From NCBI RefSeq assembly GCF_963678975.1, contig NC_089274.1, positions 17,749,633-17,813,632 on the forward strand: a stretch of DNA of 64,000 nt, written 5' to 3'. How positions within the stretch are numbered: position 1 is the first letter of the stretch; each line of letters starts with the position of its first letter. Source of the stretch: Dysidea avara. Its lineage: Eukaryota; Porifera; Demospongiae; Dictyoceratida; Dysideidae. Position numbers and translations under genes: made by a program. Shown piece after piece: positions 826-60,868 of the stretch. The notes under the pieces were generated by a model. That model was not told the origin of the DNA. It did not search any database and was given only the letters and a program-made list of their open reading frames with translations.

Positions 826-1646
826 ATGCTCGCCCTAATTGTTCTAACAGTTTTGGAAGTAAGTTGCCTTCATCCTGGAGCAGAGGCCAACAAGAAGGTG
901 GGCTTGCAGTATAATCAGTTTTAAGATTTAGCCAGTCTAATGCTGCTTGCTAATAATATTACAGTATTGTGGGTCTAGTTATTTTAATATACACCACTGC
1001 TTTAATGTTATTATGTGCTTCCATCAGGTTTATGCGGTAGAAACCATTTTACCTCAGCCAACTGATGACCCCTAAATGGATACACAAACATGCATCCATC
1101 ACTGGACCACATGCTCTCTACTCTCAATACCTTGAGATCCTTCCTACTACTGGACCACACTGGTAACATGTTCTACAAATTCAACTGGTGCCCCCTGATG
1201 TATTGACAACTACTGATAGTGTTACTGTAACCATCACGGTTGCCATGGATACTGTACTGGCTAACAGTGCAGATCATGATCCCTCCTTTGGTATAAGTGA
1301 TGGAGTACATTTTGTTGGATTTCTTCAGCCTGATAAAACCAACTATCATGGTGGCCCATGTCAGCACATTGAGGGAAATAGGGGCAATGGAATCCTTTTA
1401 AATGCAATTCAAATCAATAGTCCTACAGTAGCTTCAAGAAAATATTCTAGTGAGACCATGCTACAAATCAGACCAGCTGAACGATGGGGATCCTGCCACA
1501 CAGAACGTGATGAAGGTTACACTAATATTGCTAATTATCAACATCTCCTAGACCTCACCAAGGGTTTGTACCTTGAAATGTATCATGGTGGTGCTCGTGA
1601 AAAATATCGCATCAAGTATATAAAGGTAGAAATTGATATTGACTGA
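826..1646 (+). pseudogene. WGSCH family copy 1, frameshifted and stopped
   Basis: Exon 1 (826-897) codes an intact 24-residue signal peptide ending A-E-A-N-K-K, followed by a GT donor. Exon 2 starts at 1028 after CATCAG. Compared with intact copies it lacks two bases after the ILP codons (around 1060) and has TAA where paralogues have CAA in the W-Q-H stretch (around 1163). The distal 152 codons (1188-1646) remain open and keep every family motif: D-S-V-T-V-T, D-H-D, F-G-I-S-D, W-G-S-C-H, Y-T-N-I-A-N-Y. AATAAA follows at 1751. Like copy 2 it lacks the cysteine at exon 2 position 2. A functional transcript starting at the internal ATG at 1188 would have no signal peptide, so I call it a pseudogene. 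Confidence 0.85.
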
Positions 1647-2757
1647 GTAACATGCATTAGGTCACACAAACAAATTGCCTAGTACTTGTGTTTGCATGCA
1701 TATATATAAACTGTACATTTTTGATTTAGTGATGACATTCTTGATTTAGTAATAAAAAGTACACTTGTGAAGTGCAGACATTTTCCTGCATATTTATATA
1801 GAGTAATAACTACCATGAGCTTTATGATTAAAAGTTATATACTGTGCCATAGGTGGCAACTATTAGCCTTACGATCGAAGACAAAGGCACGTAATGCAGT
1901 CTTCAACTTGTCATGCATGCTACTAAACTGATGTAAAGAAGTTGAGCAGTGGTTCTTCAGACTTTGGCTTACTTTTCATACATGCTACCATTCATAAAGA
2001 CCTTAGAGAGAGATGCATCTTTTCCATACCCATCTTCGTTACATTTACACAAATCATCCAGGTGCTAAAAGGATGGGAAGCATGTGCTGGGTTTCCAAAC
2101 TTGTAATAACTTAAAACAAAAGGAGTGACATTGATTAATTGAACTGCAGTACATGTACTACACTGGAGCACAGAGGAAATATATGTAATTAGCAGATATA
2201 GATCAAGCGAATCGAGCACATTCAGCATAATAGACTAAATTTTATAACTGCAATATATAACTATGCTGTATTGATCAATGCTTACATACATATGCTTGTA
2301 CCAGAAAGTTAATCTTCTTGTCAATAGATACTGGATGATCCTTAGGTTGAAAAGTAGCAGTCTTTATACCACCATCCATCTATAGGCTTTTAGCACCCAA
2401 CATATAAAATCTTAGGCAGTTAAAATTGCCAGGGTGTTTTGTTTTAGTGAAACACAGCTTCTGAACTGAACTCATGATAGAAAACACCACTGCAGTGCAC
2501 AGCTCCAAGGATGATTGAACATTGGCAAACACTGGACTACTCTAAGGATCTAATTTCTTGTGTGGGCACATGCACAAACACACTTATATATAGAGAGAGA
2601 TGCACTGATTAACCAATTATCTACACAACCGTAAAAACACTATATATACTTTATGTTACTATCATATGTTAATCATTGGTGTCAGGGTAAAACAATCTGC
2701 ATGAAACAACAGCAAATAAAGCCAATACCTACAAGTACAAGGAAAAAAATAATAAGT
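1647..2757. other. AT-rich spacer
   Basis: Contains the AATAAA at 1751 that could serve copy 1. Otherwise I see no supported exon. Short open frames here have no recognisable domain. Confidence 0.45.
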
Positions 2758-3545
2758 TTCAATTCAATTAAGGAACACGATGAGGTTGCCTATACCTGAA
2801 GATATATATACAAATGATTTAATCCCTATACTTCAGCATGACTGAATTAGGGATTAAGTATCCACTGGTATATCTTTAAGTTTAGGCAACCTTCCTGTTT
2901 CACTACCTTTTATTCCTAATTGAACTTAAAATTCCTTGCTTTTGTTTATTTACATAATTATGACTGGTGAACGCATGCATATCACATCAAAAGAAATCAT
3001 GGCATCAGACTTAATGTTTGATCTGAATGCAAACCCTACTAAAAGAGTGAAGTGGCCATTACATTTTGTTTTCAGCTATGTTTAGCCTGTTACACAATGT
3101 TGACAAACTAAAAACAGTACGGGAAGCACTTCTGCAATCAATTCAGTCACTTCAGAAAATACAGACAATTATTGTTACAAACATAGGGAAGCCATCACAT
3201 GCTACCATGAATCAACACCTTGAGTTATCAGTGACGAGAAACGGGACACAAAGGAGGACAACGATGTGGGCATTGTATGTGCTGCAGATGCTTAAAAGGC
3301 ACCTGTCAGGCTGGAGCGACATCTAACAGTAAATAATTAAACCAGCCATTGTGTGAAGGCATTAGTAAGTCAGTCAGTCAGTCAGGCAGTAGAAAATTCC
3401 TCTACATTAAATTTTTATAGCTTTTGGACTCCCAACAAATACTGCCAAGGAATCATGTGAGGCTGATTTTCTGGTCAATATTTTTGCTGTTGTTGTGAGA
3501 ATGTGCAAACCTCCATGAACCCTATAATATACAGTACTACCATAC
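2758..3545 (+). repeat. Composite repeat copy I (foldback head, CAGT core, unique tail)
   Basis: Starts with a decayed family A foldback (about 2758-2937) and continues through a segment alignable by eye to 23470-23850 (shared phrases include GACTGGTGAAC and CTTCTGCAATCAAT). It then reaches a short (CAGT)n core followed by CAGTAGAAAATTCC near 3390, and ends in ATATACAGTACTACC at about 3530. The same order recurs at 23279-24745, and the tail recurs inside the hAT element at about 10445-10670. The 86-codon open frame at 3066 lies inside this repeat and is not taken as a gene. Confidence 0.65.
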
Positions 3546-3559
3546 GACAATTTATGTTG

Positions 3560-58620: not shown

Positions 58621-58626
58621 TGCTTT

Positions 58627-58871
58627 TGTGTGTGTGTGTGTGTGTGTGTGTGTGTGTGTGTGTGTGTGTGTGTGTGTGTGTGTGTGTGTGTGTGTGTGTG
58701 TGTGTGTGTGTGTGTGTGTGTGTGTGTGTGTGTGTGTGTGTGTGTGTGTGAGAGTGAGTGAGTGAGTGAGTGAGTGAGTGAGTGAGTGAGTGAGTGAGTG
58801 AGTGAGTGAGTGAGTGAGTGAGTGAGTGAGTGAGTGAGTGAGTGAGTGTGCATGTGTGTGTGTGTGTGTGT
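58627..58871 (+). repeat. (GT)n(GAGT)n microsatellite
   Basis: About 123 nt of GT, about 100 nt of GAGT, then a short GT run. All frames across it are low complexity. Confidence 0.97.
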
Positions 58872-60101
58872 TTAATAATGCTCTCAATTGGTATAGTTTA
58901 GCCCAGGATTGCTTAAACTAGAAGGTTCTGGAGTTACTAGAGATCCTACTATGGTCACTGCTTGTGCACTGGTCGTGGCTATGCATAGAAGGACTATTAA
59001 TTGCTCTAGAATTTAAATGCACTATTGTAAGTAGCTACCATGCTGGTCAACCTTGGCTCATCCACCAAAACAGTCTGAGTTCTACTGTGGATTTGGCAGA
59101 ATTTTTTACCATAAAAGTGACCTCACCAGCACCAAAAATACTGTTGTTAAAGTTAACTACTTCAGTTCTTTGGATCCTGGATCCTGCCATTGTCTCACAA
59201 ACTCACAACATGCTGAAAAGATGAAAAGATGCACCAAGAGGAGTTTCAAACAACCTTCATTGAAATACTTAGAATTTGATTCCTCTCAGAACTTCTATGT
59301 AGCAATTTATGCATCAATCCATCATTATGTGGTATGTATACCCTATACGTGTCAAACAAACATCGATTGCTAACTGTATTAGTAAGGTTAGGTAATCCTA
59401 AGGTTGCAGCACAGGTTGTTGTCAGACCTGGTCAATAACAACAATAACAATATAGTTTAGTGATTCCGATGTGGGTGGGAGTGAGTATAGGCAATATTGG
59501 CTACTCTTAGAAAAGATCACTTAATATCTGCAATTTAGCTAATTACCAAGTGAAAAGCCTGCGTGACTCACTGTGACTTCAATAATCAGCTCATTTATGA
59601 TAGCTAAAAGAGTGGAGATCCGATGTGGGAAGGAAGGATAACAAAGGAGTGGCCACCATAATGAACAGGATATCCTAACATAGGAAGGTGTTAAGTACAA
59701 AATCAGCTTTTGTAATGTTGTAGAAAGTGTAGCTATTGCAGACACAAGGAAAGATCACTTCTAGCACTTCAAGATTTCTTATGAAAAAATCTTTTTGACA
59801 GATTAACAAATTATGATTCCTCAAATTACTCAGTTAATCTTAGAATCACAATAATATTATAGCAAATCTATTAAAAGGAAAGGTATGAATTTTCCATATC
59901 ACAGTATGTAATGTTTCCTTGCATATTTTAATGGCCTTATATAGCTAGTAAGGTATTACACTTATGCTAATATAACATTGTGATTGGCCTCATTGCTAAG
60001 AGGGTCAAATTGGCAAGGTTTTTCCTATATTATACCATGCATGAATCATGGTTTTTGCCTACCAAGTCATATTCTCAAGGTGTATTTGAAGTCACTCTGT
60101 C
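58872..60101. other. Spacer with weak open frames
   Basis: Two overlapping frames at 58964-59373 are not recognised. The repeat shared with 33455 lies at about 59380-59455. No clear TATA box upstream of copy 11; the best is TATATTATA near 60026. Confidence 0.35.
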
Positions 60102-60868
60102 ATGTTTGTGTTAGCAGCACTTGTGCTCCTGGGAATAATCTGTCTTCCTGAAGGAGTCAACGCCACCAAGAAGGTAACATCGATAATATATAAACTTGCT
60201 CTGAACATAACATTTAACCCTATACTTGTATTGTCATCCATTAGGTATGTATAAAGCACACCATCTTACCCTACTATCAACTGATTACCCCTGTGTGGCT
60301 TCAGCAGTATGCTACCATCCTTGGACCATATGATGTTCTTCCTCAGTACCTGGAACTTCAGAATGGTACTGGAGTTAGCTGGCAACAAGCTCTAGAAGTT
60401 CAATTGGTACCTCCTGATGTCTTAACAGCCAATAGCAGTGTCACTGTTACAATCACTATTGCCATGGAGACTGAACTGGCAGACAGGACAGATCATGATT
60501 TCACATTTGGCATAAGTGATAACACATCTTATATTGGATTTATTCAGTTTGACAAGGACAATTACATAGATTATTCACCATGTCGACGACATGAGGGAGA
60601 TAAGCTTAATAGACTTCTTCGAAATAGGATAGAAGATAATGCTCCCCTAGTAAATTCAAGGACTCTTTCTAGTGAGACCACACTGTGAATCATACCAGCT
60701 GAACAATGGGGATCCTGCCACACAGAACACGATGAGGGATACACTAAGATATCTAATTATGAACGTAGTCTAGACCTCAGTAATGGTTTTTTCCTTGAGA
60801 TGTACCGTCATGAGGCTGATGAAATATATCACATTAAGTACATTGCAACTGATGTTGAACTGGATTAA
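60102..60868 (+). pseudogene. WGSCH family copy 11, intact except one TGA
   Basis: Exon 1 60102-60173 (24-residue signal peptide, cleavage expected after V-N-A; donor GTAACA), a 71-nt intron, and exon 2 60245-60868, exactly the 624 nt of functional copies. The only lesion seen is TGA at 60686-60688, exon 2 codon 148, where paralogues have Gln. The frame then continues through W-G-S-C-H-T-E-H-D-E-G to TAA at 60866. All three cysteines are present. AATAAA at 61053. Very recent pseudogene, polymorphic null, assembly error or readthrough are all possible. A truncated product would lack the W-G-S-C-H cysteine and the C-terminal strands. Confidence 0.75.

What the first reader, a model, noticed from the sequence alone, without database searches (positions are those of the whole stretch)
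826..60868. A previously unassigned secreted-protein family in a birth-and-death cluster of about eleven copies
Seen: at least eight copies with a 207-codon exon 2 or a large part of it, and three shorter relics or fragments, on both strands; three fully open, one with a single stop. All two-exon copies keep a phase-0 intron exactly between the signal peptide and the mature domain, so they arose by DNA duplication rather than retroposition. Invariant: S-P-C, W-G-S-C-H-T-E, E-G-Y-T-N-I-A-N-Y, D-H-D, F-G-I-S-D. I could not match it to a named domain. A rapidly turning-over secreted family is compatible with recognition, defence, adhesion or allorecognition roles, but that is inference.
Basis: partly seen in the sequence, partly recalled or inferred. 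Interest (0 to 1): 0.8.

Follow-up and report, generated by a model that had tools for sequence, protein, structure and literature searches.

The report
Hidden lectin-fold gene family in sponge
A marine sponge carries dozens of genes for small secreted proteins that standard domain searches miss but whose predicted shape is that of sugar-binding lectins, with one strongly variable stretch, which would suit a repertoire for telling microbes or cells apart.

The parts
826..897 (+). c1 exon 1, signal peptide (24 codons), donor GTGGGC
1044..1646 (+). c1 exon 2, one stop plus disturbed 5' end (relic)
4824..4895 (+). c2 exon 1, signal peptide
5258..5881 (+). c2 exon 2, fully open
14814..14885 (+). 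c3 exon 1, signal peptide; intron 106 bp
14992..15615 (+). c3 exon 2, fully open
28827..29228 (-). c4, 3' part of exon 2 only
31252..31323 (+). c5 exon 1, signal peptide; intron 106 bp
31430..32041 (+). c5 exon 2, one stop and altered 3' end
35713..36342 (-). c6 exon 2, two stops; exon 1 not established
37721..37894 (-). c7, short fragment of exon 2
43074..43145 (-). c8 exon 1, signal peptide; intron 1,997 bp
40467..41076 (-). c8 exon 2, frameshift and one stop
46557..46628 (+). c9 exon 1, signal peptide; intron 612 bp
47241..47864 (+). c9 exon 2 (protein P0001), fully open; modelled (pLDDT 93.7) and matched to legume lectins
47538..47660 (+). hypervariable segment, residues 100-140 of c9
47577..47579 (+). 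conserved Cys113 (260 of 261 homologues)
47712..47714 (+). conserved Cys158 (260 of 261), presumed disulphide partner (inference)
60102..60173 (+). c10 exon 1, signal peptide; intron 71 bp
60245..60868 (+). c10 exon 2, one TGA

Best explanation
Each gene makes a small secreted one-domain protein: a cleaved signal peptide (exon 1) and a single concanavalin A-like beta-sandwich domain (exon 2). Two conserved cysteines are probably disulphide-bonded. The scaffold is the L-type (legume) lectin fold, but the calcium/manganese motif of classical L-type lectins is absent, so any binding would be metal-independent. I think the proteins work as soluble lectin-like recognition factors. The conserved core holds the sandwich, while the stretch around residues 100-140, under relaxed or diversifying selection, sets a different ligand specificity in each paralogue. 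The likeliest ligands are glycans of microbes, symbionts or neighbouring cells. DNA duplication and decay of copies build and prune the repertoire. My probabilities: sponge gene family 0.97; secreted 0.9; ConA-like fold 0.93; glycan or glycoconjugate binding 0.5; role in microbe or self/non-self discrimination 0.4. The fold is shown by prediction and the selection pattern by calculation; ligand and role are inferred.
Against: A shared fold shows no function. The top hit in both VIA lists is the chain recalled as bean alpha-amylase inhibitor, a lectin relative that (recalled) does not bind sugar. Profile comparison with 30 bacterial Lectin_legB domains scored 18.0, no better than reversed decoys at 18.2 and 17.95. 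Foldseek TM-scores of the legume lectins are moderate (0.37-0.55) with rmsd 6.5-12, and other ConA-like domains (phage Dit CBM at rank 1, GH43 xylosidase, clostridial neurotoxin binding domain) score similarly, so the exact subfamily is open. One of the eight close pairs (the most recent) has no change inside 100-140, and pooled pN/pS inside is 0.89, which relaxed constraint alone could give. I chose the eight pairs. Only 17 of 262 collected proteins show a hydrophobic start, I think because most database entries are single-exon readings. No expression or binding data.
Confidence: 0.45

Rival explanations
1. The proteins keep a lectin scaffold but bind proteins, not sugars, for example as inhibitors of microbial or prey enzymes, as bean alpha-amylase inhibitor does. 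The variable stretch follows changing targets.
Against: Z differences under 1 are ties by the tool's own note, and the inhibitor is close in length, which may favour it. No target known.
Confidence: 0.2
2. Structural or adhesive secreted proteins of the sponge matrix, or stored proteins, with no recognition role. Residues 100-140 are simply a tolerant stretch.
For: pN/pS inside the segment is near 0.9, as relaxed constraint would give. The rest is under purifying selection.
Against: Relaxation in a stretch that holds a near-invariant cysteine and, in this group, conserved E117-G118 is odd; dozens of diverged intact paralogues are more than a housekeeping matrix protein needs (inference).
Confidence: 0.2
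3. Secreted defensive proteins toxic to predators or competitors, using a lectin-fold domain to bind surfaces.
For: ConA-like domains serve as binding parts of many secreted proteins (general knowledge; one search lists such folds). Many diverged copies.
Against: One domain only; no second domain and no Pfam match seen.
Confidence: 0.08
4. Mostly a dying family: the window is a graveyard and the open copies are open by chance.
For: Seven of ten window copies are broken or partial.
Against: Open copies in the sampled pairs have dN/dS below 1, about 73 near-full-length stop-free exons genome-wide (hand count), and six NCBI-named D. avara proteins among the listed rows, one of them truncated.
Confidence: 0.04

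Closest known systems
Legume (L-type) lectins, Pfam PF00139 Lectin_legB
   Same: Best fold match of two separately modelled groups, same strand order, about 180 residues aligned; secreted.
   Different: 4-11% identity in the VIA rows; no Pfam match; no PF00139 match in a six-frame search of this genome; profile-profile score equals decoys; metal motif found in 23 of 30 bacterial PF00139 domains, in 17 of 261 family proteins and there out of place in the six printed; sugar binding unknown.
Bean alpha-amylase inhibitor and arcelin (lectin-like legume proteins)
   Same: Top fold matches 1dhk_B and 1viw_B (chain identity recalled; titles name amylase complexes) and arcelin 1avb_A; like this family they lack full classical lectin sites (recalled).
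   Different: Plant seed proteins; no sequence similarity found in PDB searches.
ERGIC-53/VIP36 L-type lectins, PF03388
   Same: Same broad fold class (recalled); present in D. avara (18 exon-sized matches on C10 and C11, 17 over the cut-off).
   Different: Separate multi-exon genes; the family has no PF03388 match and no transmembrane-like segment in 259 of 261.
ConA-like domains of phage baseplates and tails
   Same: Similar Foldseek and VIA scores (5ly8; 8zdo; BFVD list).
   Different: No sequence relation found: no tblastn match in 50,697 phage records, none in viral contigs by peptide patterns.
Expanded secreted recognition families of invertebrates such as snail FREPs or amphioxus VCBPs (recalled)
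   Same: Secreted, multigene, variation concentrated in one part of the domain.
   Different: Different folds (fibrinogen, immunoglobulin; recalled); no challenge or individual-level data here.

Membership tests
Concanavalin A-like lectin/glucanase superfamily (fold level) | ConA-like jelly-roll beta sandwich | tested here: met
Legume lectins PF00139 | match to the PF00139 profile | tested here: not met
Legume lectins PF00139 | profile-profile sequence relation above decoys | tested here: not met
   score 18.0 against 18.2 and 17.95 for reversed decoys; 30 bacterial domains used
Legume lectins PF00139 | Ca/Mn ligands Glu8, Asp10, Asn14, Asp19, His24 (ConA numbering, PMC6337138, passage seen) | tested here: not met
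   loose motif in 23 of 30 bacterial domains, 17 of 261 family members; the six of those 17 that were printed all lie in one other segment, after WGSCHTE
Legume lectins PF00139 | carbohydrate binding with sugar-binding Asp, Gly and Asn | not testable with these tools
   needs coordinates and assays; D85 and G98 are near invariant, but their equivalence to the lectin Asp and Gly is only my guess from strand order
ERGIC-53/VIP36 lectins PF03388 | match to PF03388 and membrane anchor | tested here: not met
   no match; no TM-like stretch in 259 of 261
Diversifying secreted recognition repertoire (functional class) | many secreted paralogues with amino-acid change concentrated in one segment | tested here: met
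Diversifying secreted recognition repertoire (functional class) | positive selection (dN over dS significantly above 1) in that segment | tested here: inconclusive
   pooled pN/pS 0.89 inside against 0.33 outside, above 1 inside in 3 of 8 pairs; in 19 overlapping pairs the bin 128-139 is at 1.37 and 104-115 at 0.96
Diversifying secreted recognition repertoire (functional class) | expression in immune-relevant cells and ligand binding | not tested
   no RNA-seq or binding data

The most novel reading that the evidence does not exclude
An early-branching animal built a large germline repertoire of secreted recognition proteins on the L-type lectin scaffold, without the metal site and with one stretch turned into a specificity-setting variable surface. 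It would be a sponge counterpart of FREPs or VCBPs that domain-based immune-gene surveys cannot see.
Probability: 0.3. Interest if true: 0.8.

Novelty: new variant of a known kind. Interest (0 to 1): 0.55.

Why it matters
Sponges must sort food bacteria, symbionts and neighbours with innate tools. The D. avara genome paper counts only 3 Lectin_C genes among the 23 Pfam domains in its Table 1 (PMC12909245, sections 3.1-3.2 seen). A family with about 73 intact mature exons of lectin fold would be a large set of secreted recognition candidates in this genome, and no Pfam model found it. The variable segment makes the idea testable with ordinary glycan arrays and segment swaps.

Tried and rejected
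Pfam at E up to 10 for three copies and up to 1 for 19 members (only single weak hits, Chitin_bind_4 0.037 and Bystin 0.2). PHROGs for two copies: one weak hit, E 0.62. PDB by sequence and by profile: none. Phages (13), viral contigs (14), prokaryote genome contigs (15: 24 pattern hits, none confirmed). Three protein-database searches named only D. avara in the listed rows; the rest are unnamed, mostly ENA or JGI (one, P0008, is marked as the window's own). Only 120 rows each of 217, 232 and 155 are shown, so wider distribution is not excluded. Sequence link to legume lectins: hhalign local, global and low-threshold modes, no signal; a recalled PROSITE-like pattern fitted only 2 of 30 true domains and was dropped. 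Mapping ConA ligand residues on the model was not possible without coordinates. Retroposition: rejected, introns kept. Intron boundary in other loci (four loci): clean in L020 and L006; in L013 exon 1 was found but no GT stands directly at its end; in L007 exon 1 was not found. Recent expansion inside the window: not supported; rows at 100% there are overlaps of neighbouring extracts, and rows from the reverse of a neighbour were ignored too. The 12-codon scan was exploratory, so the 100-140 test was repeated as a permutation scan, which does not model autocorrelation along the protein. One search aligned 261 of 262 proteins (length 150-260); its printed tree gives support 1.0, 0.997 and 0.118 to the groups of 17, 103 and 141. 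One search used 33 of 34 exons found by pattern in 40 loci and the window (one truncated exon dropped; loci without a frame of 185 residues or without the pattern not used).
Literature: searches (listings with starts of abstracts; PMC12909245 abstract, outline, sections 3.1 and 3.2 and passages; PMC6337138 one passage; PMC3834338 two passages, no use) showed no description of this family; the library holds open-licence PMC papers only.
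Full report
What the window is. The window lies at G000:C3:17749633-17813632 of a 550.8-Mb assembly. A homologue named by NCBI as Dysidea avara sits on a contig of 50,264,139 bases, exactly the length of G000:C3, so the host is the demosponge D. avara. The D. avara genome paper (PMC12909245; abstract, outline, sections 3.1-3.2 and passages seen) mentions no such family in what I read.

Copies. Ten exon-2 bodies are present: c1, c2, c3, c5, c9, c10 on + and c4, c6, c7, c8 on -. 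Three are open (c2, c3, c9), five near full length but broken (c1, c5, c6, c8, c10), two fragments (c4, c7). Seven have an identified 24-codon signal exon; their introns begin with GT and are phase 0 (in c1 and c2 the acceptor lies a few bases off the stretch first extracted). The same layout with a clean boundary is seen in a distant member (L006); of four loci tested, L013 and L007 did not show it cleanly. Exon-length matches between window copies are 66.9-76.1% identical in DNA and lie mostly in the exons, with one intronic match (c8/c9, 254 bases, 74%) and short closer stretches for fragment c7 (85-93% over 58-93 bases): duplication by DNA, mostly long ago. The closest relative of c9 is 3.2 Mb away on the same contig (92% protein identity).

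Genome-wide scale. One window copy as query gives 150 matches, the number scored, out of 170 candidates (a lower bound, and some genes count in two pieces). Queries from two other groups give 116 and 143 matches, overlapping with these. Counting rows by hand, stop-free matches covering about 190 residues or more number 37 (this group), 16 (C9/C4 group, rows) and 20 (C10/C11/C12/C7/C2 group), together 73; some may be haplotype duplicates in the assembly. A tree of 261 proteins shows groups of 17, 103 and 141 (printed support 1.0, 0.997, 0.118). Main clusters lie on C2 (37-40 Mb), C9 (18.3-20.0 Mb), C10 (23-30 Mb), C11, C12 and C15.

No known family by sequence. Pfam, PDB sequences, phages (13), viral contigs (14) and prokaryote contigs (15) gave nothing beyond chance-level hits. 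Protein-database searches gave 217, 232 and 155 relatives; in the 120 rows listed each time, named ones are all D. avara 'uncharacterized protein' (six proteins), the rest unnamed.

But not a legume lectin by sequence. I took 30 bacterial PF00139 domains (32 of 395 genomes had one) as a yardstick. hhalign of the family profile against them scored 18.0, with reversed decoys at 18.2 and 17.95. The Ca/Mn ligands are documented in PMC6337138 (one passage); a loose version of the pattern fits 23 of 30 bacterial domains and 17 of 261 family proteins, and the six of those that were printed all fall in the same other segment. PF00139 has no match in this genome; PF03388 does, in other genes.

Selection and variability. 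In 33 stop-free mature exons from the genome, 47 pairs have dS under 1 and none has dN/dS over 1; the 13 closest pairs run from 0.09 to 0.71. In eight close pairs with no shared member, chosen by me, residues 100-140 hold about 133 nonsynonymous and 44 synonymous changes against 211 and 175 elsewhere (pN/pS 0.89 and 0.33; Fisher 3e-6); pN is higher inside in 7 of 8, pN/pS above 1 inside in 3 of 8, and the most recent pair (L012/L013) has no change inside. Because that segment had been seen first in an exploratory scan, I ran a permutation scan: the best 41-codon window for nonsynonymous change is exactly 100-140 (0 of 10,000), while synonymous changes do not cluster (2,096 of 10,000); protein entropy of 92 homologues peaks in the same window (0 of 10,000). 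Inside it C113 is kept in 260 of 261, and E117-G118 is strongly conserved within this group.

Reading. A secreted, disulphide-stabilised (inferred; 162 of 261 have exactly two cysteines), metal-independent (inferred) lectin-fold domain with a fixed core and one diversifying stretch is best read as a soluble recognition protein; glycan ligands are the likeliest but unproven. The alpha-amylase inhibitor match keeps protein targets open. Relaxed constraint, instead of positive selection, could also produce the variable stretch.

Verdict. Interest is moderate: a large hidden lectin-fold repertoire in a sponge, with a clear next experiment.

Noticed in passing
G000:C9:19239683-19255905 and 19430644-19446856: Family copies and relics repeat with equal spacing and nearly equal scores about 191 kb apart, a recent segmental duplication or a haplotype duplicate left in the assembly.
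   Followed up: no
G000:C11:24485493-24486071 and 24568674-24569252: Two members with identical scores 83 kb apart; recent duplication or assembly duplicate.
   Followed up: no
window 25903-26277 (-): Open frame with a zinc-finger-like stretch reminiscent (from memory) of ANKZF1/Vms1; no Pfam hit at E 0.01, likely an exon of an unrelated gene inside the cluster.
   Followed up: partly
window 23832-24080: Long tandem stretch reading as (AGRQ)n or (PACL)n on the two strands.
   Followed up: no
window 27392-27837 (-): Overlapping frames that look (from memory) like the end of a retrotransposon reverse transcriptase; only a weak DUF6094 hit, below cut-off.
   Followed up: partly
window 62576-62839 (-): Short frame with a weak Pox_A32 profile hit (E 0.004, below the family's cut-off).
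   Followed up: no
window 30566-30914: About 350 bases between c4 and c5 that match their own reverse complement at 77%, an inverted repeat (worked out rows).
   Followed up: no
G000:C13:9780688-9781302 (L022): NCBI's D. avara model P0068 ('isoform X2') ends where this copy's open frame ends at a stop, so a truncated member was annotated as a gene.
   Followed up: partly
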